Position numbers and translations under genes: made by a program. DNA of 64,000 bases from Carex sylvatica (lineage: Eukaryota; Streptophyta; Magnoliopsida; Poales; Cyperaceae), in the NCBI GenBank assembly GCA_964058845.1, contig CAXKVR010000016.1, positions 124,001 through 188,000 of the forward strand, in the 5' to 3' direction. Under the pieces are notes generated by a model. That model was given only the letters and a program-made list of their open reading frames with translations, did not search any database and was not told where the DNA came from. Position 1 is the first letter of the stretch, and every line of letters begins with the position of its first letter. Positions 34,421-55,899 of this stretch are shown one piece after another.

Positions 34421-36757
34421 ACACTTTTAAATGTAACTTGTATAGTAATGCATATGCCGGTACAATATACCACTAGCAGAATCAGCGTCAGCAATGCCTT
34501 TATTCAGAGACGGAGGGATATAGAGCAAATGGGGGTCAATTGACCCCCATACCTTTTCAAAAATTGGATTATTAGGTTTTGTTATATATTTTATAGTAAA
34601 ATGCTATGGATACCATAAATTGAACCCCATACTTTTTTTATAAAAATGTTATATGATTGACCCCCATTCTTTTCAAAGAAACTAGACTGTTGTACAATGT
34701 GTACAACTTGAGTTCTTGTAACATTTTACCCTTGTATGATTTTGACCCCCATTACTTAAATATCTTCCTCCACCCCTGCCTCAATTTAACCATAAAAACT
34801 TAAATGGCCTCTAACCTGTTAATTTTGGTAAGCCGTACTTAGCCAGGGTGAATATTTTAGCATACCAGGCCTGTTTGGTAGAGAAACAACCAAGGTTGCA
34901 GGCCAGCATCAGTAAGTTACCAACACAAGCTGGTTGTACTCCTAGTTAACAAGTGACAATTAATATAAGACATCACACATTGTCAGAAGCCTCTGCTGAT
35001 AATTTGAGGAATTGAGCTCCTATGCTTAGCTAAGTATATTAAGTTGTCATGCTTGAAATTCAATCTTAGTCATCTGTCAAGGTCTTAATAGTAAAACCTA
35101 GTGCATACCTGCAAAATGGACTTAGCCATGGCAACACCATCAACTGGTACAACTGAACCGATTAGAAGACCAGTAAGAACAGGCGTTACTACAACCGAAG
35201 AAATAGTAGAAGAGCTTGTTAGTAGTATACTCAAGGCCACATCCCCTTTGCTTAGGTAACCAGCATAACTAGATAACTGTGCACCCGCCACACAACACAT
35301 GAGAATGAACCCGGCATAGAATGTAGATGGCATTCTAAAGGCCTTTGCAATTAAGAGACCTAAAACGGGCTTAAGTGCGTACTGAGCGATATATCCAACT
35401 GACAGGGGTACTGGTCTGTATTGGAACCATGGAGAAGAAAGAATTAGCTGACACGTCTCATTATTGATCCTGAATTTGCAATTATAACTAATGCACAACC
35501 AACACATAATTATTTATAAAATCTACAAAAGTATTGAGTTAATTAGCATTTGTTTATGTAACAATGCCTCAATTGAACCCGTAGCATCAATTAGTTATCA
35601 ATTTGAGCACTGTGCCTCTAAAAGCCTCCTGATTCTAATAAGATTTACCCTCAAAACATCACTCCTGGAAGTAAAATCCAAATAACAAAATAAAAAACTG
35701 AACTGAAGCAGGCCCAAAAGCATGGCCAAAGCCCCTCCTACTGTACTGGACTACTGGTGGGCACAGACTGGTTCCTTCTGATTAAGAACCTAAGAATTGT
35801 CAACTGTGGTGCTGATCCTTAATTCATACATTAGAGAAGGTGACTTGTTTAAATGGATGATGAAAGAGAAAAAAAGCATTTTTAAGAACCTCTTGAAAGC
35901 AAGAGCAAAATCATCAATCGACAGCTTAATCCCAATTGATAGCATTATTCCTCCAAGAGCTGGTGCATAGTATTCGTTTGAAACCCTAAGACAGAACCTC
36001 AAGTCAACAATTTTCCATTTCAGGGAACTCAAATCACATATTAATTATTCTACAATTAAAAGATAATGCATCTACTGTAACAAAATTAGTTTGTATTTTC
36101 TGCTTTCTCTTTCACTATGTAAAATATATCTCCCCGTAATTCAAACAGATAATTTTTTTAGTTACCATCTTAATATTATAAAATTCCGACCTTACCATCG
36201 CTTTTTGGGAAATTCAGAAACTACCATCCACAAAGGTTCCACGCATATTCAATCTGCATGAACGGTAGTTTCTGCATTTCCAAAAAGCGATGGTAAGGTC
36301 AGAATTTTGAAATATAAAGATCAAATTTTCTATTCCCGTGGAACAATTAAAATAGTCGTAATCAGAAATACCAGCAGCTTGCAGTTGTTAGTTGTTACCA
36401 GGAGAAGGTTGTGGGATAGCTGAGAGCCGCCACACCAGTGGCCACAACTACAAGCGGCAGCATGGCCGAGATTTTCTGTGACACATCGTCCCCATTTTCT
36501 CCAGCGACTCCGTCTGACCTCTCATCTCCAGTCCCAGACGTGGCGCCGAAGTAGAGTATGGAAGCATTCCCCTCTCTCCTGTGCCAACCGACCTTACCGA
36601 AACCTGGTATTGAAAAGGGCGTTGAACTGGCCGACACGCGTCCGCGAGGCCCAGTTCGTACGGACACGTGGCGTAACCCGGCAAGACTGCGCGGTTGGCC
36701 ACGGGACATTGGGAAAGAAGCGCACGTGGAGCCGCAGAGGCAAGGAACTGCGGCCAT
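33298..36757 (-). CDS. Plastid sodium/metabolite cotransporter, BASS family
   Basis: This is a member of the bile acid:sodium symporter family; plant members sit in the plastid inner envelope and move pyruvate, keto acids or similar organic anions with sodium. Five minus-strand exons join in frame: 36399-36757, 35890-35985, 35109-35415, 34113-34360 and 33298-33538 (416 aa). The first about 70 residues are rich in Ser, Arg and Ala (MAAVPCLCGSTCASF..) and fit a chloroplast transit peptide. Eight or nine hydrophobic helices follow. The family blocks are NEYYAPALGGIMLSIGIKLS, GYIAQYALKPVLGLLIA, CVAGAQLSSY (with the KGDVALSI that follows), ISLCTGMQSSTLAGLLA and AVPAACSVVIMAI. Which BASS paralogue this is cannot be decided here. 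Intron 1 holds a hairpin element, and intron 3 a hAT MITE. Confidence 0.9.
33587..33675. repeat. 44-bp tandem duplication in BASS intron 4
   Basis: 'tataatattctgtatac' starts at 33587 and again at 33631, followed in both by 'gatac.cgtcaaattatc'. Confidence 0.9.
34505..34778. mobile_element. hAT-type MITE in BASS intron 3
   Basis: The ends are CAGAGACGGAGGGATAT and, on the right (reverse complement), CAGGGGTGGAGGAAGAT. The 8-bp flanks are cctttatt (34497-34504) and cctcaatt (34779-34786). It shares the 'gggggtcaattgaccccc' subterminal palindrome and 'gtaaaatgctatggRta' with the element at 19605-20023. Confidence 0.8.
36170..36320. repeat. Long hairpin in BASS intron 1
   Basis: Arms 36180-36225 and 36264-36308 are nearly perfect reverse complements (core 'gaccttaccatcgctttttg'), with about 38 bases of loop. 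The size and symmetry suit a tiny MITE, and a transcript would form a miRNA-precursor-like stem. Confidence 0.85.
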
Positions 36758-37876
36758 TGGAAGGGAAAGGGAAGGAAATACTTTGATGAGCCGCAGAAGA
36801 TACTTGTAGATAGATATATATATGAGGTATGAAATTGATAGAAGATAAAAATGGAGAGGATGAGAGTGAGGTTTTGTGGTCTGTGTACCAGGACAAAGTC
36901 ACTCACGGTTGGGTTGGGTTGGATGATTGGATCCTTCGAGTTCGAGGGAATCTCTCTCGAGCTCGCCGTGGAATAATTCTAAGCGAGTCTCATTCCGATT
37001 CCATAATCTACACCCTCTCAAGTAACGATAAATTTCTGTTTAGATCACAGCCGTCCGATAGTAATCCGGGCCAATCCGGCTGAGGTGGAAAGTACAGATA
37101 CGTTTTACTATTCGTGCGGATTCTGATTGGACGGTCCACATCCAAATAGTAATATTCTGTTACCGTAGGTGATTTGAATTCGTCAGACTCCCATCTCTCC
37201 AATCATTTTAATGTAGAATTGTCGTAGAATTAACAAATGTTGCCAACGAACCAAGATATTTTGCCTTGCCGATCAGCAAGGGAATTCGTATCCTCTGCGT
37301 TAACTCAAAAGGGAATCTTTTTGAGTTAATAAATTTTGGTCCTCCAATTTGTTTTAAGATTTGTGCAGACTAAATCTGCATTAATATTAAAGAGTTCTTA
37401 TATCATAAACAGGGACTAGATTGACTCTATTTAAAATCAGACGGTTGAAATTCATTAACTCAAAAGATTCTCTTTTTAGTTAATGCAGAGGATATGCGAA
37501 TTGATTCTCTTTTTAGTTAATGCAGAGGATATGCATTCGCAGTAAGATAGCTACGGGTGCGTCTCTTTTGAGATATCTCAACATTTGCGTGACCGACGTG
37601 TCCGGTGCCTATTCGGGGGTAGCGCGGGGCCTAGTATTATTGAGCTTCGAGATTCATGCAAACTGTATTTGAACGGTTTAGATTTTTCAAAAAGTCATGC
37701 AAAATTTGAGATATCTCAGAGGATATGAATTCGATAGCTACTGGCTAGGTACGAGTTAGATCTGGTTTCTCAACGCAGCCTATCTGTAAGACTGTAAGCA
37801 TCACTGCGCTGCTTATACAAATAAAAGGATGTTTGGCCAACGAGACCTGCCTCCATTTGTTTGTGGCACTGGTACA
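36758..37876. other. BASS promoter side and small inverted-repeat elements
   Basis: About 37281-37540 is a MITE-like unit: the left end 'gaattcgtatcctctgcgtt' mirrors the right end 'aatgcagaggatatgcgaat', and the right 37 bp is tandemly repeated (37466 and 37503). About 37566-37723 is a second unit bordered by 'ttgagatatctca' with 'gcgtgac'/'gtcatgc' inside. Its core matches part of the nested unit in the 5-phosphatase intron ('gtgcctattcggg'). No gene was seen. Confidence 0.5.
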
Positions 37877-38647
37877 TAGTGGTTTGCAAACGGACCGGAT
37901 CAGGCGGTTTGGGCAAAATCTGGGCACAGACATTGGTAGACAACGGCACGGGTGTTACGGGCACACGGGTATAATGGGTCGGATATTATGGATTTTTTTT
38001 TAAAATCCTGTCCTGCCCGTTTAATACCCGTGTCCATCACGGATTCGGGGGCAGGGCAGTCCGGGTAGGAGGGCTGGGCAGTACGGTCCGTATCCGATTT
38101 TTTTTTCTTTAAAAACCAATAAATTATAAATCCAAATTCATACCTATTAAAATTCATTTGACATGGTTGTATATTTGAACTCAATAATTTTTGTTATAAT
38201 AAAATATAAATAAAAATTTTCTTAAATCAATTACTTTAAAAATAATTAAGCTCTTATTTTAAACAATAGATTAACAAATAAAAGTTACCATCCTCCTTTA
38301 TTCGAGTTTGGAACCGGCTATGTAAAATAATATAGGTGGAGTTCTAACTCTTTTTTTTAGTAATTCTTCTTTAAAATAAATAATTTAAAAACTAATTAAA
38401 ATGTTTAGAAATTTATAATTTAAAAAATAACCATAAATATTAAAAGAAGTTAGAAATTTATACCGACACTACCTATCTAGAAGTTCGCATTCCTATATCA
38501 TTGTTCGCTCTCTTTCACACCGTCTGAATTTGAATTAGCCTCGGCCCTCGGCCTACGGCCCGGTACCACTTTCTTTAGTGCCGACTTCGGGTGATGATGC
38601 TTGTTGATCTCGATGTTGCATGCGATTTTCAGCATCAATCCAATCTT

Positions 38648-40368
38648 TCAAGCACACAAGTCTCTCAAAACATGTGCACTAAACTTACTGTATTTATCGG
38701 AGAGGATCATGTTCGCCGAACTAAAATAACTTTCGAAAGGGACGGTTGACACGGGCACGGCAAATACGTCGCGGGCCATCATCGTCAGCATTGGATAGAT
38801 CTTTACATGCCTCCTCCACCACACAATGATGTCAATATCTTCATTTTTGTTGAGCATCGACATATAGCTCAATAACTCGTTTATGGATGTGTGCGTTCGC
38901 TCTCCGACTGAAAATCTGCTAACAATCCACCACTACTAGTGCTCCTAGAAGTGAAACTATTAAAAAATAAATAAATAATTAGCAGACAAATAATGTAGAT
39001 ATTATAAGTAGAGTAGAACTAGGGTGTTCTTAAGCTCCAAAACCCATCAAATCGGTTTCAAATGACGAATCCGAACTGTTGAAACCCGCCTACCTTACGA
39101 GTGATGCGTCTACATGTGAAAATTTTAAACATTCGAATTAATTTAGTATAAAGTCAATCGGTCAAAATTAGAAACTTAATAAATTAATTTTAGTGCATTC
39201 ATTTTTTGAACGTTTTTTGACCGCTTGATTTTATACTAAATTAATTCGAATATTTAAAATTTTCACATATAGACGCATCACTCATAAGATAGGTAGATTT
39301 CAACGGTTCGAATTAGTCATTTGAAACCGATTTGATGGGTTTTGGAGTTAAGCTCACCAAACACTTTGGTGAGCTTAAGAACACCCTAGTTCTACTCTTA
39401 TAAGTAATAAAGATTAAAAATATATGTATATTTATATTCATACCTAGGGCCGACATGGAACGAAGACGGGTTCTGGTTGCCACTCATTCTTGAGTTGTAT
39501 ATATTAAACATCTCATTGAACTTCGAATTCACGTATGTCTCCATCCCGGTTTTGTCTAAATGTATATTATCTTTGTACATTTTAACTACTTTGATCGTGT
39601 AATACTTCTTGTATGCCGGGTTAAGGCAGTTTGTGATAATGGCCATGAGGGGTACATCTTTTCAATATTTTAGAAATTTTTGTTTCATGACATCTACGAT
39701 CGGCGTGAGAGATTTATCATGGATTTCAGCTTGTTCCAATTCACTATATACCTTGGAGATGTTATAGAGATGTTTGAGCAACTCAAATGACGTCGGTGAG
39801 TACGAGCATTATAGTTGGACGGTTGATATAAAAATGGTTCTTATGAAATCTTTAACCCTTTCTAGTTGCTCCCATTCTCCGTTGGTGAGTTCCAATGCCA
39901 ATCCCTCAGGGATGGAGCCTCTCAAAGCCTCCCCTATGACAGCTTTGTAAGGAATGCATTGGTTTAACATCCTATAGGTAGAGTTTCAACGGGTATCTAT
40001 ATCTCAAGGTACTCTCAACTTGCTCAATCCATAGTGGACACATAATCTCGCAAAACATTGTTTTCTTTCTTGGTTCGAAACAACGTGGTTGAGAGCATTT
40101 TTAAATTTAATTATCAATAGATTTACGACTTCTGTTTTAAGACCCGTCTTCACGACGAGGTGAAGTATGTGGACAAGCACATTTTTGGTGAAATATTTCA
40201 CCATTCATAATCGGATTTAATGACCGTTTAAAAATCTCAATGGAAGCTAGGTTGTTGCTAGCATTATCGAATGAGATAGAAAAAATCTTGTTATCCATAT
40301 CCCTCTTAAGGTTATACTCTTCTAAGACCTCAATAATGAATTTAAAAATTACATTTGCAGTGTGCGGG
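38648..40368 (-). pseudogene. hAT transposase, C-terminal part (broken)
   Basis: 38648-38872 encodes the hAT dimerisation domain: IDIIVWWRRHVKIYP, MLTMMARDVFAVPVST, FESYFSSANMILSDKYS. Further upstream on the same strand lie segments from the catalytic region: 40137-40385 has IFSISFDNASNN (the Asp-containing second catalytic strand of hAT enzymes), and about 40004-40204 has VHILHLVVKTGLK. The pieces are in different frames with stops between them, and a MITE (39011-39397) interrupts the gene, so it cannot make a working enzyme. The 5' part of the same gene continues at 50814-51865 beyond the retrotransposon. Confidence 0.8.
39011..39397. mobile_element. Mutator-like MITE with perfect 9-bp target duplication
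   Basis: The ends GAGTAGAACTAGGGTGTTC and GAACACCCTAGTTCTACTC are inverted repeats that extend, with one small insertion, for more than 150 bp per arm. Target duplications TTATAAGTA are at 39002-39010 and 39398-39406. It sits within the hAT transposase gene. Confidence 0.92.
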
Positions 40369-40373
40369 GATTC

Positions 40374-41842
40374 TAATATCTCCATATTATATCTAAATTA
40401 TGGCCCTAATTTACAATGAAACCTGTGCTTTAAAGCCTATGAATGTGGACTTTTTACTTGTATTTCGATGAAATGTGGTACTGCTATGCTTTGTTTGGTA
40501 TTTTGCAAGAAAAATGGTGAAAAACTGCATCTGACTACTTTTCATACGGCCCGTATGATATTCTGTACAGGCCGTACAAGATCCGCCCAACCACACAGAA
40601 GGATCCACAACAGAGGCACAAAGTCTCCAAGTCAAAGCCAGGCATACGGTCCGTACAGGATCCCGTACGGGCCGTACAACGCTGATTCGGAAAATCCAGC
40701 TGGAATCTGAATTGAGCACGATTTGAGGAGCCGAAAAGGAAACCCCTGGAGGCGTGATCTGGGGGCATTAAAGGAGATATTCCACAGCAGAAAAAGGGGG
40801 GAATGAATCAATAACAGGGGATCTATCAATCATTCATTCAGAGTTTTTGCTTGGATAAGAGGAAAAAAGGAAGAGAAGGGAAGAACGCTAGTTTTGAACG
40901 GATCTTCGGATTTTCCACTGTTTTGTCATGAACTCTTTTATTTCTTGTTATTTGTGTTATCTTATGAACATGAGTAGCTAATTTACTTTGTTTCTAGGGG
41001 TAAGATGTAGTTTCTAGTTTAGTTTTGTTTGCATGCTACTTGGATCTTGTGTTGAATGCTTGTTTTTACTATGTTGTGTAGTATTTTGATTGCTTTATTT
41101 GTGCTTGCTTGAATTGATTAGTCATCCCGTTAGATGAATGCGCACATCTAAGTGTTAGGAGCCAAGTCTATGACATTCATTCCAACCGAGTAAAGTATAT
41201 GAAGTAGGGTGAAACCAAGGAGTACCCGAAAGGCAAAACTTTCCTTGAGGCGAAAGTCCTTGGATACTTTTAGTAAACTAACAAGTAACTTAGATAAATT
41301 AGGCCAAAATGCGAAAGTTGAGATTTAACGCATCTAAGAGGGAAGTACTTGAGTCCGGTAATCAGGTATTAGGCCAAAATGCGAAAGTTGAGATTAGGTA
41401 TCTAGATCTGGTCGAAAAGAAACCCTAAACACAGTACCAACACAGAAAACAGTGGCTGCAACATCTACTCGAGGTCCCATACGGACCGTACGGGAATCTG
41501 TACGGGCCGTATGCCTTGAGGCTGAACAGAAATGAAATCTGAACCCTGGAAACGCCCTTTTATCAATTGAAAATAACTTTAATTACTTTTTATCGTCTTT
41601 TAAACTTGTCATAAATCAGTAGAATTGTTAGAACTAAAACCAAACCAAACTCTCTCACTTCTAGAATATTAAGTGAATTTAGGATAAGTCCAGTGTTTTT
41701 CTTCCGTCCCTGTGGATCGATACCTGAGCATACTCAACGACAGGATAGTACACTTGCTATCTGAATTGACAGAGTATAACAAAGGTTTAAAAAGTATAGC
41801 TTGCTATACTGAGACTTTTTGGCATATATTCTAGTGCGATCA
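40374..41842 (+). repeat. 5' LTR of the Athila-type element
   Basis: This is the non-coding DNA between the left target duplication and the primer-binding site. It starts TAATATCTCC rather than the usual TG and ends near 'gcgatca'. It holds three of the dyad pairs (from 40544, 40644 and 41479) and an internal short duplication ('aggccaaaatgcgaaagttg' at about 41301 and 41370). It cannot be checked against a 3' partner because none is present. Confidence 0.65.
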
Positions 41843-41848
41843 AGTTTT

Positions 41849-41866
41849 TGGCGCCGTTGCCGGGAA
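41849..41866 (+). other. Primer-binding site
   Basis: TGGCGCCGTTGCCGGGAA matches a tRNA 3' CCA-end complement. Athila-like elements usually use tRNA-Asp, and this string fits it. Confidence 0.8.
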
Positions 41867-42126
41867 CGGCAACTAAAATTCTATACTTTTTCTTATTTTT
41901 GCTTGATTCTAGATTTTGATTTTAATTTTTCGTATTCCATCTTTGCAGGAACATACTGGAAGAATCACTGCCCAATAATCACTACCATCTCAGAAGCAAG
42001 GGGCAAACTTCCAACACATTTGTTCCAGCGCCACCACATCTGTCACCTCTCCGTACGGTCCGTACAAAATTCATACGGACCGTACAAACTGACAACAGAG
42101 ACCAGACAGATTCAGAACAAAGCGAA

Positions 42127-43509
42127 ATGAACAACCACGGTGCTGAACAAGATCCACTCAACGATGGTGCTGGACAAGGTCAACCCAACGAGGATCAATA
42201 CTCTGATGACGAAGGAGCAAACTATGCGCCAAGGACATTGCGAGAGTTCAATGTCCCGAGAGCTGGAGATGTTCGAGGAGCAATCCGATTGCCAAGGATT
42301 GTCGGCAACCAACCCAACTTCAATCTGGGCGTTGTCAACATCGTGCAGCAAAACACATTCCATGGCATGGATCATGAGGATCCGCATGCCCATGTTCAGA
42401 CCTTCCTTGAATGCTGTGCCACCATTAAAATTAATGGCGCAACAGCTGATTATATTAGACTTGCTTTATTTCCTTTCACTCTTAGGGATAAAGCCAAGAA
42501 ATGGTTAGGGTCATTACCAAGGGATTCAATTACCACTTGGAGGGAACCGTCCAAACTGTTTTTGACCAGATTTTTTCCCCATAAAAGAACTGCCGAGGTT
42601 AGGACCCAACTGACCAGTTTCAAACAAAGGTCTGATGAACCACTGAATGAGGCCTGAGAAAGGTTTAGGGAATTGCAATACTCTTGCCCACATCATGGTA
42701 TTCCCGAATGGTTACTTATTCAGTCTTTTTATGCTGGTTTAACTGATACCACTCGTACTTCTGTAGATGCAGTTGCAGGTGGAGCTCTCATGGATCGAGA
42801 CGCTACTGAGGCAATGAACTTAATCGACAATATGGCGACTAACCAACAGTGGTCCGGCCGAGAGGGCAATCGAGCAATTGGAGGAGGCCAACTTGAGGTC
42901 GATCAGATCACTGCTCTCACCGCCAAGTTGGATGCCATGCAGAGGGCTTTTGACAAGATGAGTGTCAAGGCACTTGGTAATCAGCAACCACAGCCTTGTG
43001 TTATGTGTGGAGACGAGGGGCATGAGTATGAGAATTGCCCGCTTGCGCAAAGGGATGAAGGGCCCGAACAAGTTAACTCTCTCAACAGTGAACCTTCCTA
43101 CTTCCCAAAACCTCCTTTCAGCCGAACCTATTCCAAGGATCCGATTGAACAACAGAATTGGAGGTGGAAGCAAAACAATCCCACACAATTCAACAACAAC
43201 CCTTCTGGCAGCAACAATAACAACCGCAACTTCTACAACAATGCTGCATTCAATAACTCGAACAACCGACCACCATATTCTGGACCATCTAAGCCCTATG
43301 TTGCTCCTGCAGTAGAAAACTTCATGCATGAACAAGGGAAGATGAATCAAATGCTTTTCGAACAGATGCAAACGATCAGTGCTCAATTGGCAAGTTTGGC
43401 CCAAAACAAACCTCAAAGTGGGAGCCAAACCGCACCACCACAACCTGGAATGCTACCAGGCCAACCAGAGATTAACCCCAGGGGAGAGGCCAAAGCGGTA
43501 ACATTGTGA
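42127..43509 (+). pseudogene. gag region of the Athila-type element
   Basis: This is the capsid/nucleocapsid part of the polyprotein. A retrotrans_gag-type domain covers the first about 200 codons (HAHVQTFLECCATIKINGA, ALFPFTLRDKAKKWLGSLPR). A CCHC zinc knuckle CVMCGDEGHEYENC lies at 42997-43038, followed by an Asn-rich linker. The frame is broken by TGA at 42655 (a position normally Trp) and TGA at 43507 (followed by SGTQYQGP, where Arg is usual); it then runs on into pol in the same frame. The start at 42127 follows the leader with dyad set d. Confidence 0.85.
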
Positions 43510-46500
43510 AGTGGGACACAGTACCAAGGACCAGCCATACCTGTCGAGCCAGAAGCCGATCATACGGTCCGTACGAATCCCATACGGCCCGTACCGACAC
43601 CCCCTGTGATTTCCGAGCAGTCAAAGCCTGATCCGATCGAGGTTGTTACTGAGAAGACATACCATACGGTCCGTACGAATACCGTACGGCCCGTACAGAA
43701 TGAAATCGACAGACAGAAAAAGAAGGTGACCGAGAAACCTCCGCCCTACCGGCCACCAGTACCATTTCCACAGAGATTAGCTGAAACTCGACTCAATGAA
43801 CAGTTCTCAAACTTTCTTGGAGTTCTCAAGCAATTGCATATTAGCATCCCATTCACCGAGGCTTTGACCCAAATGCCAACCTATGCTAAGTTTCTCAAAG
43901 ATATCCTATCCAATAAACGAAGCTTGGGGGGGCATGAGACGGTGAAATTGATTGAGCAGTGCAGTGCTATCCTGAGAAATGAACTTCCACCGAAATTGGG
44001 AGATTCGGGTAAATTTTCCATTCCATGCACAATTGGCAAAGCAACCATCCGACAAGCTTTATGTGATTTGGGGGCTAGTGTGAGTCTCATGCCGCGAACT
44101 ATCTTCGAACGAATGGGTGTAGGTGAGCTTAGACCTACACAAATGACTTTACAACTTGCGGATTCTTCGGTGAAACTACCGCTTGGCATAGTGGAGGATG
44201 TACCGGTTCGAGTCGGTAAGTTCTATGTGCCCGGTGATTTTGTTGTGATGGAAATGGAGGAAGACAAGGAGGTCCCTATTATTCTAGGACGGTCATTTTT
44301 GAGAACCGCCGGGGCGCTGATTGATGTGAAAAATGGGACTTTAACCTTGAACATAGGAGATGAGAAAGTTCACTTTCAAATCGACCGAGCAATGAAGTAT
44401 CCCGCTCAACCCGAATCGTGTTATATGGCCGATGTGATTGACGAATTAGTTGAGGAGAAGTTAATGGAGCAAATCAACAACTCTCTAAGGTATCATTCTG
44501 ATTTTTTATCTGATTTGCAGGTTGAAACAGGCGATCTTGAAATAATTTGTGCAGCAGACATGACACCTGTCTGTCTGGAAGACTTTCCGTACGGGCCGTA
44601 CACAGATCATACGGACCGTACACCAGATGAATTTCAAACCGAGAAGCTGGAGATTGAGAAGGAACCAAAAGTTCAGTCTAAGGCTGAGGCATACGGTCCG
44701 CACAAAACTCATACGGACCGTACAACAAGCCAGACAGCACAGACCACTCCCGAATTAAAACCTCTCCCAGCTACTCTCAGGTACGAATTCCTTGACTCAG
44801 AAAAGACATATCCTGTCATTGTGAATGCAGGATTGACCCCTGACCAAACCGCCAAGCTCATGGAGAAGTTGAGAACCCACAAAGGTGCGATTGGGTATTC
44901 TATCAAGGACTTGAAGGGGATCGATCCAGCCACTTGCACACACAGGATCTTGCTAGAAGATGACCACAAGCCTTCAGTTGAACACCAAAGACGGCTCAAC
45001 CCAAATTTAAAAGAGGTAGTAAAGAAAGAAATTTTAAAACTTTATGAAGCAGGTATTATCTACCCGATTTCTGACAGCAAATGGGTGAGTCCCGTCCATG
45101 TGGTTCCCAAGAAAGGAGGAGCAACAGTGGTGAAAAATGAGAAAGATGAGATGATTCAAACGCGCATTGCGACCAATTGGAGGATGTGCATAGACTATCG
45201 GAAGCTCAACGCGGCTACACGCAAGGATCACTTTCCCTTGCCATTTGTTGATCAGCTCCTTGAAAGGCTTGCTAACCACTCATATTTTTGTTATCTTGAT
45301 GGTTATTCAGGTTTCTTTCAGATTCTCATTCACTCGCAAGATCAAGAGAAGACCACATTCACATGCCCATACGGTACCTATGCATACCGTAGAATGCCTT
45401 TTGGTCTTTGCAATGCACCTGCGACTTTTCAAAGAGCCATGATGGCTATTTTTTCTGATTTTATTGAAAAAAAAGTTGAAATTTTTATGGATGATTTTTC
45501 TGTATACGGTACTTCTTTCGATTCTTGTTTGGCTAACTTATGTAAGATTTTGCAGAGATGTGAAGAAGTCAATTTAGTCCTCAATTGGAAAAAATGTCAC
45601 TTCATGGTCCAAGAAGAAATTATCTTGGGACATGTTATCACCTCTAGAGGGATCGAGATTGATAAAGCAAAAATTAAGGTAATCGAGAAACTCAAAATCC
45701 CAACAAATGTCAAGGGGGTTCGAAATTTTCTTGGACATGCCGGTTTTTATCACCGTTTCATAAAGGACTTCTCAAAAATTGCGAAACATTTGACCAATCT
45801 ACTTATTAAAGATTCTGATTTTATTTTCACTGATGATTGTGTCAAGTCTTTTTGCAGTTTAAAGGAAGCTCTTATCTCTGCACCTATCTTACAACCGCCA
45901 GATTGGTCACTACGATTTGAGTTGATGTGCGATGCAAGCGACTATGCAGTCGGAGCAGTTCTGGGGCAACGAAAAGATAAAAAGCCGTGTGTTATTTACT
46001 ATGCTAGCAAGGTGCTAGATCCGGCCCAAATGAACTACACCACAACCGAAAAGGAGCTGCTCGCCATTGTATTTGCTCTCGACAAATTCAGATCGTATTT
46101 GGTGGGCTCGAAGATAGTGGTCTACACAGATCATGCCGCACTAAGGTACCTTTTCAGTAAAAAAGATGCAAAACCAAGACTGATTAGATGGATTCTTCTT
46201 TTGCAGGAGTTTGATCTCAAGATAAGAGATACGAAAGGAGTCGAGAACTCTGTGGTGAACCATCTGTCACGTCTTCATTGGGAAGAAGATACCACAATTA
46301 AGCTCCCAATCAATGACTCATTCCCAGATGAACAACTACTTGCAATCAGTTCTGATCTGGACGACATCCATATGGGTCGTACAGAAGTTCATACGGCCTG
46401 TACAATCCAACATACGGACCGTACACAAATTCATACGGACCGTACCAGTACCAACCAGACCAAACAGCAAGCTCCCTGGTATGCTGACATCGCGAATTAC

Positions 46501-47772
46501 CTGGTCTCTGGAGTTTTGCCCGCCACAATGTCCCACCAACATAAGAAGAAACTAAGGTCGGATTCCAAGTACTACTTTTGGGATGAGCCCTACCTCTTCA
46601 AGGTTGGAGTCGATGGCGTATTCCGACTTTGTGTCCCACTCGAGGAAACAGACTCTATTCTTGCGCATTGCCACTCGTCCGCTTATGGAGGACACTCTTC
46701 ATTCTCTAAGACCACTGCCAAGGTATTACAATCTTGTTTCTTTTGGTCTTCTCTTTTTAAAGATGCAAGATCTTTTGTTATAGCTTGTGACAGGTGCCAA
46801 AGGACCGGAAACATGACAAGACGAAGTGAGATGCCTCTCAACTTTATTCTTGAGGTTGAGATTTTTGATGTTTGGGGCATCGATTTCATGGGTCCATTCC
46901 CCTCTTCTCAAGGGAATGAGTATATTTTGGTGGCAGTCGACTATGTATCAAAGTAGGTTGAGGCAATGGCGTGCCGCAAAGCTGACTCGAATTCAGTAAG
47001 AAAGTTTTTCAATGAGATCATTTTCCCTCGTTTTGGGGTGCCTCGAGCTGTCATCAGTGACGGAGGCAAGCACTTCATCAATCGACAATTCAAAAAACTC
47101 TTGAGCCGACATGGGGTGACTCACAAGGTATCAACTTCTTATCACCCTCAAACTAATGGCCAAGCTGAGATTTCTAACAGGAAAATCAAGTCGATTTTAG
47201 AGAAAACAGTCGCAAGGACGAGAAAGGATTGGGCTTTCAAGCTGCATGATGCACTTTGGGCCTACCGCACCGCCTTCAAGACACCGATCGACATGAGCCC
47301 TTACAAGCTGGTGTATGGAAAGCCGTGTCACCTTCCCGTTGAAATTGAGCACAAGGCATTTTGGGCCACAAGAGCGATCAACATGGACCTGTTTGCAGCT
47401 GGAGAAAAGTGTGTCCTCGACTTGCATGAGCTGGAGGAAATGAGGTTGCATGCGTATGAGAATGCGAAATTTTACAAGGAAAAGACGAAGCGCTTGCACG
47501 ACCAACGCATTTTGCCTCGCCAGTTCAAAGATGGAGATCTTGTACTTTTATTTAATGCTAGATTGAGAATTTTTCCAGGTAAACTCAAATCAAGATGGTT
47601 CGGCCCATTTCAGGTGGAGAAAGTGTACCCTTTAGGAGCGGTTGATATCTGGAGTACAGAAAGTGGGACCTTCAAGGTAAATGATCAACGTCTCAAGCAC
47701 TACGTTGCTGACCACTTGATGAATGAGCGGAGTGTTCAGTTTCTTACTGACCCCGCTCCGATGGAAGCTTAA
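43510..47772 (+). pseudogene. pol region: protease, reverse transcriptase, RNase H, integrase
   Basis: It continues the gag frame without a shift. Order: aspartic protease (CDLGASVSLMP, about 44068-44100), reverse transcriptase (SPVHVVPKKGG, CIDYRKLN, catalytic FMDD at 45484-45495), RNase H (LMCDASDYAVGAVLG, YTDHAALRYL), HHCC integrase finger (AHCHSSAYGGHSSF, CDRCQRTGN), integrase core ([31 protein letters not shown]) and a C-terminal domain ending at TAA 47770-47772. An in-frame TAG at 46954-46956 falls inside the integrase core, at a position normally Trp. Linkers between protease and RT, and between RNase H and integrase, carry the dyad repeats, which are translated as HTDRT- or YGPY-like peptides. 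Confidence 0.9.
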
Positions 47773-48528
47773 GTTGCGAGGTGGTCTAGCTAAAGACCTA
47801 AAACGAGCGCTTCTTGGGAGGCAACCCAAGCACTTTTAAAATTGTTATGTTTAGTTATTTCTTTTATTTTTGTTTTAGTTTCCGAATATTTAGTTTTATA
47901 TTAGTTTAATTCTGACTTTTCAATTTGTAGTTGTTATTTTTCGATTCTGAGTAGATATGAGAAGAAACCATCTCTGGGGGGTTAGTACGGTCCGTACAAA
48001 CATTCATACGGGCCGTAGGGAAACCATTAGGCGCAGAACCTCAAAGAGGCGCGACCTTCTCTCTCTTCGTGTCCTTACAACTCGCCCTTTCCCTTTTATA
48101 CCCCACCCCCCCCGACAAACCCTACCCCACCCCACCAACTCTTGTCGTTTTCTTCCTACGGACCGAACACCACCCCATACCATAAACCCTAGCCAGCCGC
48201 CGCCTTCTCCTCCGCACCAACAACCGCTTTCCGCCTTTCGCAGCACACCACCCACCGGATCTCCACCACCTTTCTCTCCGCCCCTAGCGGATCACTAAGC
48301 CCTAGCCGCCGACACTCTCTCCTCTGCACCAGCTGCCCGATCTCCATCTCTCTCCGTGTACCACCGTTCAACCCTCGCGCTCAACACCACCTTCTACTAC
48401 CCGTCGCCTCCTTTCCATCTGAGCACACCACAACCCTACGGCACGTATAACTCACCATCCGACCCGTACCGACAGCCGTCCGACCCGTACAAAACCCCGT
48501 CCGGCCCATCCAGTTTCAACTGACAAAT
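47773..48528 (+). other. Spacer between pol and env-like frame
   Basis: The spacer is pyrimidine-rich and proline-codon-rich on the plus strand, with dyad sets j (47985-48018) and k (48437-48511). No gene seen. Confidence 0.6.
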
Positions 48529-49863
48529 ATGTCTGGTGAGCGCCGTCAAAAGCGACGCCAGGACCGCTCCCCCACACCTCCCCGTCATCCATCCCCGGAG
48601 CCCTATGACTCCGGCGCTGAACAAACCTCCTCTGGCGAATACACCGACCACGCCGACCGCTTCGCGGCACGGTATTTTGACATGCCCACTCGTCGGATGT
48701 ACGAGAATTTCATCTCTTTACAAAAGAAGATTTTTGAGAACACTGCCATGATCCACCTCGACACACTCAACAGCTTTGGAGTGGAAGATGATTTCATCCT
48801 TCTCACCACTAGGGTTGGGTTTAGCCCAGATTTCTGGAACCTCCACCATCCCACCTACGAGATGGACACCAAGGAATTCCTCTCCTCTCTCGAGCTCAAG
48901 TTGAACAACCAGGATGTCCCATTCATCAAATTCTGGCTGTGCAATCGCACCCATCGCGTCTACCTCTCTCTTTTCCGCGAATGGTTCGGCTTCCATAGTA
49001 CGCCCTCTACTGACACCCTCAGTTTCCGAGAGGGATGGGATCGCGATACCTTCTGGGCCATGATCACCGGCTGCCCTCGATCTGCCAATGCCCACTACCG
49101 CGCCCGCTACATCCCTCACCCGGTTCTTCGTATCATCCAGCGTGCCCTTGCCTCTACCATCTTCGCGCGCGGTGAGACTCAGAACCACACCAACAGCGTC
49201 GACCTCATGCTCATGGACACTATGCTCCGTCCCACCCCCGAGTATCCGGACTTGGCCTTTCTCATGGTCCAGCACTGGCTTGGGCAGCAAGCTAAGAACA
49301 AGCCAGGTGGAAAGATAAAAATTGGAGCCTATGTCGAGGTCATCAAGCAACGCCTAGGCTTGGGGGCGTATCCGGGTCGCGACATCTGTCCTGGCCCCAC
49401 TCTTATGGATCCTGAGAGCTTCCGCCAGGCCCTCTTCCTCTCTATCTCCCGCGGACCCGCCGGTCACTCTGACTACTATGACTAGCGCTTTGTGGATGGC
49501 TCTTCACGTTGCCTCCCATTTGGCCCATCCATCTCCGTGGCTGACCCCTCCACCTGGTTAGTCTCTGCGACTCCACCCCCTCACTCGGACATTCCCAGTT
49601 TCTCCTCCCAGCCACCCACATCTGAGTATGCACGCCATTGCCCAGCTGACCCCTCTCTTAGGGATATCTACTCCCTCCTGACTGACATCCGGGACACTCA
49701 GCTGCAGCAGGGCCGTGACATCACAGCCATCCAGCAGCAGTCAGCTCAGCACACCACTCGACTGGATGAGATTAGTGGGTACATGGCTGACTATGCCGAG
49801 CGCCTTGGTGACATTGAGGACCAGTTTCGCGACTGGCGCTTCGACCCCTCCTCTGACTACTGA
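48529..49863 (+). pseudogene. Env-like third frame of the Athila-type element
   Basis: This 445-codon frame begins MSGERRQKRRQDRSPTPPR and contains RFAARYFDMPTRRMYENF, VPFIKFWLCNRTHRVYLS and a C-terminal QLQQGRDITAIQQQSAQHTT coiled-coil-like stretch. It sits where Athila elements carry their env-like or ORF3 protein of unknown role. A TAG at 49483-49485 interrupts it; the same frame continues to TGA at 49861-49863. I see no clear signal peptide or membrane anchor, so the 'env' label is positional. Confidence 0.7.
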
Positions 49864-50808
49864 TCAGGTTCTTCCTACCCCAGCTTATTTATTTTTCCAT
49901 TACATGTCTTGAAGCATTGAGGGAAATGCTCAGACTAAGCTTGGGGGGGTGATTAGTTATTTTCCTTATTTGCATTTAGTTTGTTCTTTTTGTTTTTTGT
50001 GCTTGCATGTTTTGAGGATTAAATTTGTGTGAATTGCGTGAATCGGGGTCCAATTTGAGAAATTTTGGTTGGGAAATGGTTGAATTAGGAAAATTGGAAA
50101 TAATCACGCATTTGGTTGAAAGAACTGTGTACGATAGTCTGTTTTGGGACTTTTGTGGGATTGAATTGAATTGTGTCAAGAAAGCATTTGAAACCGGACT
50201 ATGCCTTGTGAAAATAGAAAAATGGGATTTCAAAGCAATAGAAAGATTTGGACATCCATTGGTATGAATGAATATCATTGGATGTGTGTATTCATGATGT
50301 ATACGAAGAGAAAAGATGGAGAATATAAGAGTACTGACAATAAGCCATGTTAGGCGCCTTTGAGCTCGTCTCCCATACGGACCGTACCCAGATCATACGG
50401 ACCGTACACCTAAAATAAAAAAAAAAACTAAAAAGAGCCTTTACATACATCAACACACAAAGTCCGCAACTTTCTGACCTAAGCTTGTTCCAAGCTTGGG
50501 GGAATTTCCAACCACAAATGAGGGCATAAATTTGGTAAAGAATGAACTATTGATGCGTTTGATTGCTTAATTCTTACAAATAGCAATACATTCTTGAAGT
50601 TAGGGTTTGATCAATTGAATTGTGGGGTGAATCAAAGTTGACCAAAGGAAACCAAATTACTATCCAAAATGAAGATTTCTAACGAACGCAAGATCATGCA
50701 CATTTTTCCTCTTGGTAGATTAACTTGCATATAGGTAAGTCCAACAACCAAAAACACACCTAAGTTAGAATTTTTGCTTGAGGACAAGCAAAGTTCAAGC
50801 TTGGGGGA
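49864..50808 (+). other. 3' untranslated zone with three polypurine-tract-like copies
   Basis: 'aagcttggggg' occurs at about 49936, 50494 and 50797. The last copy, after 'gcttgaggacaagcaaagtt', is in the position of the true polypurine tract, and the element ends directly there. Dyad set l is at 50375-50407. Confidence 0.7.
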
Positions 50809-50813
50809 GATTC

Positions 50814-51865
50814 CAATACTTTAAAACTTAATACCCTCTTTTGTAATACCCAATTATCATCCATCAAATACCCGGTAATACAAGAGTACCCGAGTCCATG
50901 TTTACCGACAGTCAATATATCGGAGGTAATTGAGACTCTATTGTTTTTGTATGCAAATGTAGCTCGTAGCTCATTTTTTGTAATGGTAAATTGATTTTTC
51001 ATTTCACTAACCATCTTTCTATGATGAATCATCTTGTACATTGGTTGACCACACCTCCAAATGACCAACCAGGTAAAACTCAAGCAACCACCCATACTTA
51101 TTGGTTGTTCTTTATAGGTAATGTATCGGGCCAATTTACTAAGCATTTTTTATTCATCAAATTTTGGGTTGTTTCTGGTACCATTCGCGTTCACAAGAAT
51201 TTGGATTTGTCTCGGTCCATCATTTTCACTTGGTTCTTGACCCTTTTTTCATGCATTTCGACATGTCTCTTAAAGCTAGTCATACAAATATGTTGTTTAT
51301 ACTCAAAATTCAATTTCTTGCAATTTTTTGCCTTACATTGTTGATGTTGCATAGTGCCCTCCCCATCTCTTATCCAATCATAGTATATCAACCACAGTTG
51401 ATTGTATTCGGACCATCTTTTAGCCTTCTTTTCTGATAATTCTTGTGGGGGGGGATACTTGTCGAATGAGGGACATCAACCTCTTAAATTTTGGAGACAC
51501 TTTTAGAAGGATTATCTTCTATAGTGGACGTGAATTGACTCGATGCTACTAAAGAAGTGCCTCCATATGCATACGGTGGTGTCGATTGATGTGTTTCTTG
51601 TGGAATGAATATGTTTGGATCATTTGAAGTATAATACGGTGCATTCATTTGGGGGTTGTTGATTACTTGTTTGTAGTACTTGGTCCCTTCTTTGATAATT
51701 TTGTGGATAATTTTGTGGATAATTAGTTGGTGGCATTTGGGAGGAACTATCAAGATAATTATTTGGATAATTTTGTAGATAATTAGGTGGTAGCATATCG
51801 TAGCCAAAAATAAAGTCTGACATTCTAGCGATGTCTTCGTCCACCGATTCGCGATAAGATGTCAT
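50814..51865 (-). pseudogene. hAT transposase, N-terminal part (broken)
   Basis: From the 5' end of the minus strand: a start near 51865 (MTSYRESVDEDIARMSDF) with Asn/Tyr/Pro/Gln-rich repeats; then a BED-type zinc-finger region at about 51191-51391 (CKAKNCKKL...TSFKRHVEMH); then 50814-51146 with AYKNNRVSITSDI (first catalytic Asp region) and CITGYLMDDNWVLQKRVLSF. The frame changes between these blocks, so it is degenerate. The gene is cut at 50813 by the retrotransposon and resumes at 40373 and below. Confidence 0.8.
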
Positions 51866-52134
51866 TTTTTAAACCTGTTCAAAAAAATAAATATAAATTA
51901 ATTCACATATTCAAAAAAATAAATCTAACCTATTTTTTTAACCTATTAAAAATAAAACCGAATTTAAAAAATAAAATCTAACATATTCAAAACAAATCTA
52001 ATTACTTCACATATTCACAAAAATAAATCTAACATCTTTTTTTAACCTATTAAAAATAAATTCAAATTTTAAAAATTAAATCTAACCTATTCAAAAAATA
52101 AATCTAACATTTTTTTAACCTATTAAAAATAAAA

Positions 52135-52320
52135 ACAGAAATAGAAATAGAAATAAAAAAAATAAAAAAATATGTTGTTTCGGCCTCTGTTCCTGGCAGG
52201 AACAGGCTGTTTTGGCCTTTGTAGAGAAGTTGTATTTTCTGCAAAAGCCGAAATAGGCTGTTCCGACCAGGAATAGAGGCTGAAACAACATATTTTTTTT
52301 CTGTTTTTTTATTTCTATTT
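52135..52320. repeat. Large imperfect hairpin
   Basis: The arms run from 'aaatagaaataaaaaaaata' through 'tatgttgtttcggcctctgt' on the left to 'aggctgaaacaacatat' and 'tttatttctattt' on the right. A second inner pair ('caggctgttttggc' and 'gccgaaataggctg') shortens the loop to about 30 bases. Confidence 0.75.
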
Positions 52321-52551
52321 AAAAAAAATAAATCTAATCTATTTAAAAATAAATCTAACATTTTTATTATAAATCTAACCTATTCAAAATAAATCTAACA
52401 TTTTTATTATAAATCTAATATAACATATTTAAATTTTAACATTCAACAAATTTTAATCTAATAATCTAACCATATTCAAAAATATTTCTAACATTCAAAG
52501 ATTTCTAACTATTTAACCTATTCAAAAATAAATCTAATATTATAAATAAAA

Positions 52552-53224
52552 GGGGCAATTTCATGTATATTCCTCAAAAGTTTTAATATTACATATTTAT
52601 CCCTCCAAAATTAATAATTACATATTTATCCTTAAAAATCTTACAAACTCACATATTTGTCCAATCTAACTCTATAACATATCAAATTTCTCCAAAAATA
52701 ATTAAATAATATTTTTTTAAATGTAAAAAATTATTGTACAGTATTAATTAAAAAAATATAGTGACTATTATGCTCTTCATTTTTGTCTCTTTAGTCCGTC
52801 TATGTTCTCTTCTCTCTAAGGTGCCAAACCTTCCGCCTCTCTATCCAAAATGAAAAATTAAAGCAGCGAGAGATAGCATAAATCTGTGAGAGGGGAGGCG
52901 ACTAGGGAAGGCGAGGAGAAATCTGTGATTCGGTGCATTTGGAGAGAGGTGGGGGAAATTTGGCGCCTTACAAAGAAGAGAACTCAACTGGATTAAAGAG
53001 GCCGAATGGCATAATGGTCAACATATTATTAATTAATATTGTAAAATGAATTTTAAAGTTAAAAAAATATTTAATTATTTTTGGAGATATTTGATATGTT
53101 ATAGAGTTAGATTGGACAAATATGTGAGTTTGTACAATTTTCAAGGATAAATATGTAATTACTAATTTTGGAGGGATAAATACGTAATATTGAAACTTTT
53201 GAGGAATATATATGAAATTCCCCC
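52552..53224. mobile_element. Foldback (MULE-type) element, perfect 9-bp target duplication
   Basis: The arms of about 180 bp start GGGGCAATTTCATGTATATT and end (reverse complement) GGGGGAATTTCATATATATT. TAAATAAAA flanks both sides (52543-52551 and 53225-53233). The centre (about 52790-53000) is more GC-rich and not repeated in the arms, so it may be captured host sequence. Confidence 0.9.
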
Positions 53225-54951
53225 TAAATAAAATCTAACATATTTAAAAATGAATCTAACATGTAAAATCAAAATATATCCAAATTTGAAAAATAAAATC
53301 TAACCTATTCAAAACAAATCTAATTACTTCACATATTCACAAAAATAAATATAACCTATTTATTTAACCTATTAAAAATAAATTCGAATTTCAAAAATAA
53401 AATCTAACCTATTAATAATAAATCTAATTACTTCACATATTCTAAATAATAAATCTAACCTATTTATTTAACCCATTAAAAATAAATCCGAATTTCAAAA
53501 ATAAAATCTAACCTATTAAAAATAAATCTAATTACTTCACATATTCTAAAAAATAAATCTAACCTATTTATTTAATTCATTAAAAATAAATCCGAATTTT
53601 AAAAATAAAATATAACCTATTAAAAATAAATCTAATTACTTCACATATTCTAAAAAATAAATCTAACCTATTTATTTAACCCATTAAAAATAAATTCGAA
53701 TTTCAAAAATAAAATCTAACCTATTAAAAATAAATCTAACTTATTTATTTAACCCATTAAAAATAAATCTGAATTTCAAAAATAAATCTAATTACTTCAC
53801 ATATTAAAAAAAAATCTAACATATTTTTGTAACCTATTAAAAATAAATCCGAATTTCAAAAATAAAATCTAACATATTCAAAACAAATCTAATTACTTCA
53901 CATCTAACAAATCTAACATAAACTAAATAAATATAACATATTCAATAAATCTAACAAATCTAACATAAAATAAATCTAATTACTTAACAAATTTAACAAA
54001 TCTAACAAATCTAATTACTTAACATTCAATAAATCTATGCTAGCATAAACTAAATTTACTCTACAAAAATAAATTAATCTAACATGAAATAAATGTAACA
54101 TTTAAATCCTGCTAAAAAAATCTTGCAGGAGGTGCTGAACTTTGTAATTTCGATATTTTCGTAATTCCATTTGCGTATTTGTAGAATGAATTAAATTTAC
54201 AACTATATTTTTTTAAAACAATAAATTTAAAAATTGAGAATAATAAAAATTGAGATTGAGAGAATGAGAGAATAAGAGATTGAGAGATTGAGATAATGAG
54301 ATAATGTGAAAATATTGAGAAGAAGAGGGATGTATTTAAAAAATTTTGATTGGAGTGAGAATAAAATTTGAAATTTAATAAAATAAAAAACCCGGGGGCA
54401 CGAGTAAGGTCCGGACGATCCGTATTTGATTTGACCGGTCCGAGAGGGGGGGATTTTGAAAAAAATTGAAATTTAAAAAATAAACGGGTACACGGATGCG
54501 GGCACGTATACACGGGCTCACGGGCACAGATTAACGGGCACTACGGTCCGGGTATGCACAGATTTTATCCCAAAAAATTGGTTTCGGTCTGTTTAATATC
54601 CGTGCTCGTGTACCCGTGTACCCGTGTATCCGTGCATACCCGTGGCACGGACACAATCCGATCCGGACACAGACATGAGCGGACCAAATCGGGTTTAGCT
54701 CCCGAGGGTTTTGTCAAACCACTACTGATACATGATTGATTGAAGGTATATATTTATTGCTCCGGAGTTTTGATAAGAGAAGGTAAATGAAAAGCAAGCT
54801 AAGTAGATCAAATGAGAGAAGCAGATGACACCCCGGGTAACGGGGTGGGTTAGATGGAAATTAAATTAAATGGACTGCGGCAGGTTCCAGATTTCAATTG
54901 GGTCTCTGGATGTAACTTAAAAAAAAAAACTAAAATAGATATTTTTTTGTT

Positions 54952-55591
54952 GGAGGAATTTCACGTATATCTTTAAATTTCTTTTTAAAATTACGTATTT
55001 TTTTCTCTAAACTTTTAAAAAATCACAAATTTATCAATTATATTGTCTTTTATATGAAAACTCATTCTAAATTTATACCCATTTTATTTTTTATTAAAAG
55101 CATAAAATGCTTCATCGAACTCAAATTTGAATATGAAGAGTTTCTCTACCGTTCGATCCACGTGTATCGCATTAAGATCTACACGCGTCGCTTCAACTTT
55201 CATGTGTGTTCGCTTTAAGATTTGTGCTAACCTAGCGTGCATGAATCTTAAAGCAATTTTGATCTGTGCACATCGCATTAAGATATGTGCATGTTGCTTC
55301 ACTATTCATGTGTTTGCTTCAAAAATCATGCTGATCTAGCGTGTACGTGTCTTAAAGAAGTTCGGACAGTAGAGTACTCTTCAAATTCAAATTTTAGTTA
55401 GATGGACGTTTTATATTTTAATGAGAGGGTATAATAGGTATTTTTAAATTTCAAATGAGTTTTAATATAAAAGACAATAAAATGGATAAATTTGTAAGTT
55501 TTTCAAGTTTAGAGGGAATACATAATTTCAAAGTTTAGATGAAAAAATATATAATTTTGAAGTTTTTGAGGGGTATACGTGAAATTCCCCC
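54952..55591. mobile_element. Second foldback element of the same superfamily
   Basis: The left arm begins GGAGGAATTTCACGTATAT; the right arm ends ATACGTGAAATTCCCCC. Arms are about 150 bp. The middle (about 55110-55400) contains a second inverted pair ('aaatttgaatatgaagagt' and 'actcttcaaattcaaattt'). The target duplication is not convincing. Confidence 0.75.
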
Positions 55592-55899
55592 TTTTGATTT
55601 TTGATTTTTGAGTAACTATATGGAATATGCATATTACATTACGGAGATATGCGTGTTATGAATTTAGTTATATATTTGAAAATTTTAAACAGTTAATTAA
55701 AACAGTTAAACATTATTTTTTATAAAAATATATTTGTAGATCAAATTTAATATTTTTTTAGATTTATGTTATTATTTTTTAATAGGTAGAATATCACTAA
55801 TTTATGGTACATAATTTTCAAATCAATTAATACTCTATCTATCTGAAAAGTTAATAAAAAAATATTCTAAAAAGGTGTAACTTTTGATCTCCAAGTATA

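What the first reader, a model, noticed from the sequence alone, without database searches (positions are those of the whole stretch)
40544..50407. Twelve sets of a 13-bp dyad, phased two helical turns apart, spread along one retrotransposon
The near-palindrome RTACGGNCCGTAY occurs about 28 times in twelve sets. In nearly every set the copies start 20 or 21 bp apart, with 7-8 bp between them. Two sets are quadruples (46370-46445 and the degenerate 48437-48511). Sets occupy the LTR, the leader, the gag/pol junction, the protease-RT linker, the RNase H-integrase linker, the pol/env spacer, the env leader and the 3' zone. Inside coding DNA they lie in linkers and are read in different ways (HTVRT, YGPYTDHTDRT), so the DNA rather than the peptide seems conserved. 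A dyad at about 10.5-bp multiples is what a cooperative dimeric DNA-binding protein would need. Possible roles are a host silencing or insulator site, a nucleocapsid or integrase site, or a small mobile cassette. That role is inference.
Basis: partly seen in the sequence, partly recalled or inferred. Interest (0 to 1): 0.88.

Follow-up and report, generated by a model that had tools for sequence, protein, structure and literature searches.

The report
Paired DNA dyads along Athila retrotransposons
A plant jumping gene carries about 28 copies of a short mirror-symmetric DNA word, mostly in pairs two helix turns apart, which look like docking sites for a DNA-binding protein that probably helps the element against silencing by its host.

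Summary
In detail: 28 copies in 12 sets, all 16 within-set intervals 20 or 21 bp. The own genome has 1,117 exact 13-mers against 3 for the reversed control, and 408 close pairs against 0. The carrier is an Athila-type Ty3/gypsy retrotransposon; the sets recur at the same map positions in 20 copies examined.

Sister Athila families in the same genome have sets at matching places, mostly phased 20-21 bp, with other dyads: TACGG-N-CCGTA in the window family, CACGG-N-CCGTG (often one arm only) in two others, TGCGA-N-TCGCA in a fourth. Two CpGs per dyad stay conserved where other CpGs erode. Dyads use all three pol frames, so DNA is what is kept.

The parts
40544..40577 (+). dyad pair, LTR set a (start spacing 21)
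   Evidence: same spacing in 17 of 18 copies that cover it
40644..40677 (+). dyad pair, LTR set b (21)
   Evidence: 17 of 17 covered copies
41479..41512 (+). dyad pair, LTR set c (21)
   Evidence: 18 of 18 covered copies; family F4 has a triple in the corresponding interval
41849..41870 (+). primer-binding-site-like sequence after the 5' LTR (Athila type, recalled)
   Evidence: read; not tested against a tRNA
42053..42085 (+). dyad pair, leader upstream of gag (20)
   Evidence: 17 of 18 covered copies
42127..43509 (+). gag, interrupted in this copy (Retrotrans_gag PF03732; CCHC knuckle read by eye)
43562..43594 (+). dyad pair, gag/pol junction a (20)
   Evidence: 20 of 20 copies
43664..43696 (+). 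dyad pair, gag/pol junction b (20)
   Evidence: 20 of 20 copies keep the 20-bp interval; in 6 of them the scan also reports an extra weak site 9 bp upstream
43606..46956 (+). pol: protease, reverse transcriptase, RNase H, integrase zinc domain
44589..44621 (+). dyad pair, protease-RT linker a (20)
   Evidence: 19 of 20 copies
44691..44723 (+). dyad pair, protease-RT linker b (20)
   Evidence: 19 of 20 copies
46370..46445 (+). dyad quadruple, RNase H-integrase linker (21-21-21)
   Evidence: 17 of 20 copies as quadruple, 3 of 20 as triple
46966..47772 (+). integrase core (rve)
47985..48018 (+). dyad pair, pol/3'-ORF spacer (21)
   Evidence: 19 of 20 copies
48436..48511 (+). degenerate dyad quadruple ending 17 bp before the ATG of the 3' ORF
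   Evidence: 15 of 17 covered copies score as four units, intervals 20-22 with 22-21-21 the commonest (recount); four-unit sets also in F2 and F4
48529..49485 (+). 3' ORF, PF03078 'ATHILA ORF-1': candidate dyad-binding protein (318 codons here, 444 in intact copies)
50375..50407 (+). dyad pair, 3' zone (20)
   Evidence: 6 of 10 covered copies as a pair, 2 single, 2 none

Best explanation
The dyads are binding sites on double-stranded DNA for a symmetric (dimeric) protein that sits in cooperative pairs on one face of the helix at sites spread over the whole element. The binder serves the element and co-evolves with each Athila family, so it is most likely element-encoded, namely the 3' ORF product (PF03078). 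By analogy with VANC proteins, it would bind the CpG-bearing arrays in the LTR, in coding linkers and in front of its own gene and keep the element, or its promoter, out of host DNA-methylation silencing. Shown here: site architecture, phasing, conservation of DNA rather than peptide, dyads that differ between families at matching places, CpG retention, fast but constrained evolution of the ORF. Inferred: that a protein binds, that it is the ORF product, that the effect is anti-silencing. My step estimates: DNA-binding sites 0.85, element-encoded binder 0.5, anti-silencing as main effect given that 0.6; the confidence below is for an element-encoded binder at these sites that serves the element.
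Confidence: 0.45

Rival explanations
1. The dyads are sites of a host transcription or chromatin factor that the element exploits (for example as enhancers), with families tuned to different members of a host factor family.
For: Cis arrays of host sites are common in LTRs (recalled). A different, foldback-like repeat in this genome carries a similar CGGNCCG palindrome at 41-bp spacing, and Sirevirus CGG-CCG repeats occur in envelope-less elements too, so the core may suit a host protein.
Against: Several dyad types coexist in one genome at matching positions, which a single host factor does not explain. Sites spread through coding linkers and the 3' zone, not only the LTR.
Confidence: 0.3
2. 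RNA-level function: adjacent dyads pair as a hairpin, or dyads serve genomic RNA dimerisation or packaging.
For: Each dyad is nearly self-complementary, so two neighbours can form a stem with a 7-8 nt loop; the inner positions are complementary in 11 to 13 of 13 intervals, as they must be for any repeated palindrome.
Against: In 13 neighbouring window intervals the outer positions are complementary in only 3 of 13 and the centre in 4 of 13; triples and longer runs occur; a hairpin does not need each unit to be a palindrome; the 20/21-bp period fits B-DNA.
Confidence: 0.07
3. Neutral repeat dynamics: a short palindromic unit multiplies by slippage and is homogenised, with no binder.
For: Whole-unit gain or loss exists (RNase H-integrase set 17 quadruples and 3 triples of 20; a run of six units in one F2 copy).
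Against: Spacers differ between sets, sets persist at matching places across families, CpG columns and third codon positions are constrained in the source lineage but not after insertion, and the centre base is free.
Confidence: 0.08
4. The sites attract host silencing (CpG-rich palindromes as targets of small-RNA methylation or of REM-type factors that recruit Pol IV).
For: Clusters of palindromes in maize Sireviruses are small-RNA hotspots (passages of PMC5311732 and PMC10760457); REM factors recognise repeated short motifs (passages of PMC12270911).
Against: A harmful site should be lost, but the source lineage keeps it. The REM motif words seen there (TTTTGCTTAT, AAGCGGAT) do not match.
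Confidence: 0.08

Closest known systems
Sirevirus repeated motifs (RM), PMC2829016
   Same: High-copy palindromes, 12 of 13 with a CGG-CCG core, that differ between elements; clustered in the LTR and upstream of the envelope-like gene (section 9 read).
   Different: Those are Ty1/copia, and copies are reported in LTR, linker and the start of ENV. Here the element is Ty3/gypsy Athila, sets also sit in gag-pol linkers, units are phased at 20/21 bp, and one sister family uses CGA-TCG.
VANC/VANDAL sequence-specific anti-silencing, PMC5735166 and PMC10398659
   Same: Short motif repeated along one transposon family, unit gain and loss, different motifs in related families (passages); the best structural match to the 3' ORF model is VANC21 with DNA.
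   Different: VANDALs are Mu-like DNA transposons (partly recalled); the motif YAGTATTAY is not palindromic and lies mainly in noncoding tandem repeats; no sequence relation to the Athila ORF found; binding and demethylation not shown here.
Retand antisense TRP28 ORFs, PMC11963269
   Same: Ty3/gypsy elements with an extra ORF predicted to bind DNA and family-specific repeats between pol and the 3' LTR (passages).
   Different: Antisense ORF of another protein family and tandem arrays in one zone, not phased dyads through the element.
Drosophila gypsy Su(Hw) insulator (recalled)
   Same: Clustered binding sites inside an LTR element.
   Different: Host zinc-finger protein, one cluster, non-palindromic site (all recalled).

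Membership tests
Athila lineage (Ty3/gypsy) | gag-PR-RT-RH-INT order | tested here: met
Athila lineage (Ty3/gypsy) | 3' ORF of PF03078 type | tested here: met
Athila lineage (Ty3/gypsy) | two LTRs around this copy | tested here: inconclusive
   no second LTR found in window 36000-56000; this copy appears truncated at the 3' end; repeated LTR-type spacing on C1 suggests two LTRs in other copies
Athila lineage (Ty3/gypsy) | tRNA-Asp type primer site | not tested
   sequence at 41849-41870 resembles it from memory only
Sirevirus RM | Ty1/copia Sirevirus element | tested here: not met
   integrase lies after RNase H and PF03078 is present
Sirevirus RM | palindromes with CGG-CCG core in LTR and upstream of the extra ORF | tested here: met
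   for the window family (the set before the ORF is degenerate); sister family F4 has CGA-TCG
VANC/VANDAL system | protein related by sequence to VANC | tested here: inconclusive
   no such match, at the sensitivity of HMMER
VANC/VANDAL system | VANC-type fold | tested here: inconclusive
VANC/VANDAL system | family-specific short motif repeated in the element | tested here: met
VANC/VANDAL system | protein binds motif and lowers methylation of its family | not testable with these tools
   needs in vitro binding and methylation data
SBP/SPL transcription-factor site (GTAC core, recalled) | GTAC core kept in all families | tested here: not met
   F4 core is TGCGANTCGCA; F2 left arms mostly CACGG
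REM/CLSY RdDM motifs | motif TTTTGCTTAT or AAGCGGAT repeats | tested here: not met
   words given in passages of PMC12270911 compared by eye with the dyad types; other REM factors not tested

The most novel reading that the evidence does not exclude
Athila-type retrotransposons carry a self-contained, family-specific site-and-protein system: the enigmatic 'env-like' 3' ORF is a VANC-like DNA-binding anti-silencing factor that recognises helically phased, CpG-bearing dyads planted along the whole element, including inside coding linkers, and site and protein have changed specificity together at least twice among the families of one genome.
Probability: 0.35. Interest if true: 0.9.

Novelty: new variant of a known kind. 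Interest (0 to 1): 0.78.

Why it matters
The function of the extra 3' ORF of Athila elements, often called envelope-like, is unsettled. A set of family-specific, phased sites with a fast-evolving ORF whose model resembles VANC21 gives a directly testable role. It would extend element-encoded, sequence-specific anti-silencing from VANDAL DNA transposons to a large LTR-retrotransposon lineage, and link the unexplained Sirevirus CGG-CCG repeats to the same logic. It also offers a natural series of matched site and protein variants within one genome.

Tried and rejected
SPL/SBP site (GTAC core): rejected because sister families lose GTAC. REM/CLSY motifs: different words in the passages seen (one search shows no word). 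Pair hairpin: not supported. Mobile cassette: spacers and flanks differ between sets. The dyads seen upstream of RT in L040 were first taken as an F4 set; they belong to an inverted F1 LTR nested in that copy (93% over 605 columns), so they were dropped from the F4 tally. A motif-agnostic palindrome autocorrelation gave lags 20 and 21 (5 pairs each; null maximum 1) in the window element, lags 20 and 40 (2 each) in F2 L029, lag 20 (2) in F3, one pair at 21 in F4 L040, and nothing in F2 L026 or F4 L041. Sequence and fold searches for the 3' ORF: Foldseek found nothing at E <= 0.001; profiles against PDB found no VANC. VANC21 is absent from the VIA list of the longer model, where most rows match only the C-terminal helix. 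No Athila relatives in viral contigs by pair pattern or by ORF. In bacterial and archaeal genome contigs the exact pair pattern occurs in 4 stretches, taken as chance and not examined. Host species not identified (one search gave one unnamed protein; one search named distant Chenopodium, Beta and Bienertia proteins only). The 270 and 64 hits were not each placed in an Athila copy. Paper searches that showed no report of these dyads in Athila; the library is open-licence only, and the 2016 Sirevirus palindrome paper was not held. Two sunflower papers (passages) already raise VANC as a parallel for LTR-retrotransposon ORFs or methylation, and report Athila clades with distinct methylation patterns; no such sites are named in the passages seen.
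Full report
OBSERVATION. The 13-bp near-palindrome RTACGGNCCGTAY is in the window as described. One search finds 37 matches with up to 2 mismatches against 1.97 +/- 1.39 in shuffles. The interval 40544-50407 holds 28 dyads in 12 sets; all 16 within-set intervals are 20 or 21 bp. In the own genome (64.0 Mb, 950 contigs) the exact pattern occurs 1,117 times against 3 for the reversed, equally palindromic control, and pairs with a gap of 0-30 bp 408 times against 0. By my count of the plus-strand rows in the capped list for contig C1, 56 of 57 lie in three clusters with this element's spacing, two of which contain an RT match; the remaining one (C1:318454) has a degenerate partner 21 bp away (L033).

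THE ELEMENT. Pfam places gag, protease, RT, RNase H, integrase and then PF03078 ATHILA in Ty3/gypsy order. No second LTR was found in 36000-56000, so this copy seems truncated at its 3' end; gag and pol are interrupted. An RT piece finds 33 further matches at 93-96% and six at 78-80% (40 of 76 candidates scored). I fetched 20 of the 33 and several sister copies.

POSITION AND PHASE. Sites in the 20 copies map to the same positions as in the window (7 to 20 copies per site). Core sites up to 60 bp apart have spacings 20 (97), 21 (111), 22 (4), 42 (27) and 44 (1), and no other. Per set, the interval is the same in nearly every covered copy, with these exceptions: the RNase H-integrase set is a quadruple in 17 of 20 and a triple in 3; the degenerate env-leader set has four units in 15 of 17 covered copies, most often at 22-21-21; the 3' zone pair is kept in 6 of 10. 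Distances between neighbouring sets are not strict helical multiples, so the phasing claim is limited to units within a set.

WHAT IS CONSERVED. Over 24 dyads (env-leader quadruple left out) and 21 copies, position 2 is T in 463 of 463 cells and position 12 is A in 461 of 461, while the centre base is spread over all four letters. The outermost bases are mostly A left and C right, and a C precedes 21 of 24 window dyads, so the sites share an orientation and are not perfect palindromes. In dyad-core CpG columns, variants shared by two or more copies occur in 6 of 98 columns, against 50 of 180 in noncoding and linker DNA (p = 8e-6) and 136 of 646 in all columns counted outside dyads (p = 2e-4); private changes have the same rate inside and outside (25 of 1,971 cells against 176 of 12,802; shared-to-private contrast p = 0.012). 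Copies therefore decay normally after insertion, while the replicating lineage keeps the sites. For non-CpG core columns no clear depletion is seen (16 of 167 shared; noncoding 366 of 2,477; gag-pol 327 of 4,529; earlier version p = 0.15). In pol, dyads lie in all three frames; third codon positions in dyad cores are shared-variable in 1 of 36 columns against 190 of 1,075 (p = 0.013), four-fold sites in 0 of 21 against 71 of 445 (p = 0.056). Copies share ancestry, so these p values are optimistic.

SISTER FAMILIES. RT groups: F1 (window), F2 (C298 clade), F3 (C48), F4 (C938, C480, C44), F5 (C783), with 78-84% RT identity between groups. F2 and F3 carry CACGG-N-CCGTG or mixed forms in linkers, leader, LTR and before the 3' ORF; pooled spacings are mainly 20 (23) and 21 (14), with 15 (6), 19 (3), 40 (7) and scattered others. 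In F3 both arms changed in most sites (C 13 of 18, G 12 of 18); in F2 the left arm has C in 71 of 112 but the right arm G in only 43 of 112. F4 carries TGCGA-N-YCGCA-like dyads: four units at 21-21-21 in the RNase H-integrase linker of L040, two 20-bp pairs in the protease-RT linker of L043, a triple in the pol/3'-ORF spacer (21, 21) and four units before the 3' ORF (20, 20, 21) of C480; a triple (21, 21) in C480 lies in the interval homologous to LTR set c. The fetched C480 gag piece ends before the gag/pol junction; by coordinate arithmetic a listed exact hit just beyond it, C480:26479-26491, falls where gag/pol set a would be. Genome counts: RCACGGNCCGTGY 270 against 2, RTGCGANTCGCAY 64 against 0; these hits were not each placed in an Athila copy. 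F5 was seen only as one 2.3-kb piece and shows at most weak traces; L041 of F4 is eroded. Across representatives that I picked by architecture, weak ones included (28 F1, 32 F2, 18 F4 sites), arm complementarity is 0.744, falls to 0.655 when right arms are exchanged across families (0 of 2,000 reach the observed value), but is unchanged when exchanged within families (1,067 of 2,000). So symmetry holds between families, not site by site. Between F1 and the sister copies, dyad CpG columns are 80-93% identical and other CpGs of the pol region 60-72%; dyad arms are 62-66% and other bases 76-77%. In a linker-only alignment dyad CpGs are 90.5%, arms 61% and flanks 59%, so the arms change at the pace of their surroundings. 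The constant features are two CpGs five bp apart and the 20/21-bp phase.

MECHANISM. A near-symmetric site repeated at two helical turns places bound dimers on one face of B-DNA. Because several dyad types coexist in one genome at matching positions, and because the element's lineage keeps the sites, a co-evolving, element-encoded binder that benefits the element is the simplest reading; spread through a 10-kb body, including coding linkers, argues for a chromatin-wide effect rather than a promoter alone. VANC proteins do this in VANDAL elements: short motifs repeated in the element, different in related families, with loss of methylation (passages of PMC5735166 and PMC10398659). The CpGs in the dyads would make binding a direct competitor or sensor of methylation; that last step is inference.

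COMPARISON. Sireviruses (Ty1/copia) have 8-32 palindromic repeats per element, 12 of 13 with a CGG-CCG core, in LTRs and upstream of ENV (section 9 of PMC2829016 read; passages), described there as absent from the classic retrotransposons compared. The Athila dyads share core and placement but differ in lineage, phasing, gag-pol linker sites and inter-family switching. I therefore do not file them as Sirevirus RMs or as a VANC system; they work like the former's cis side and may work like the latter. No report of these dyads in Athila was found in the open-licence library with the searches. Rated a new variant of a known kind.

LIMITS. Host unnamed; one genome; sister families from few copies; F4 sites pooled from several partial copies; no experimental data.

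Noticed in passing
L030, L031, L034 (G000 C33 and C107): A different repeat with inverted arms carries the longer palindrome ACCGAACGGNCCGTTCGGT and close variants at 41-bp spacing (about four helix turns); RAACGGNCCGTTY has 43 hits against 6 in the genome. Possibly a second element type using the same principle.
   Followed up: partly
L033 (G000:C1:318250-318700): A lone ATACGGACCGTAT with a degenerate dyad ACACAGGTCGTGT 21 bp downstream, outside the Athila clusters; perhaps another LTR.
   Followed up: partly
window 38081-38093: A single exact dyad GTACGGTCCGTAT outside the element with no partner within 100 bp listed.
   Followed up: no
window 42820-43443 and 48718-49350, minus strand: Open frames of 207 and 210 codons antisense to gag and to the 3' ORF; antisense ORFs are reported in a sunflower Athila and in Retand elements.
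   Followed up: no
window 39035-39347: Inverted repeat, 133-nt arms 91% complementary with a 47-nt loop just upstream of the element, MITE-like.
   Followed up: no
window 51896-54024: AT-rich repeats with 104-bp period, interrupted by an inverted repeat with 165-nt arms.
   Followed up: no
window 20578-23626, minus strand: Exons of an inositol-polyphosphate 5-phosphatase-like WD40 protein (PF23754), a likely host gene.
   Followed up: partly
L040 (G000:C938): An F4 Athila copy is interrupted upstream of RT by an inverted F1-type LTR, 93% identical to the window LTR over 605 columns.
   Followed up: yes
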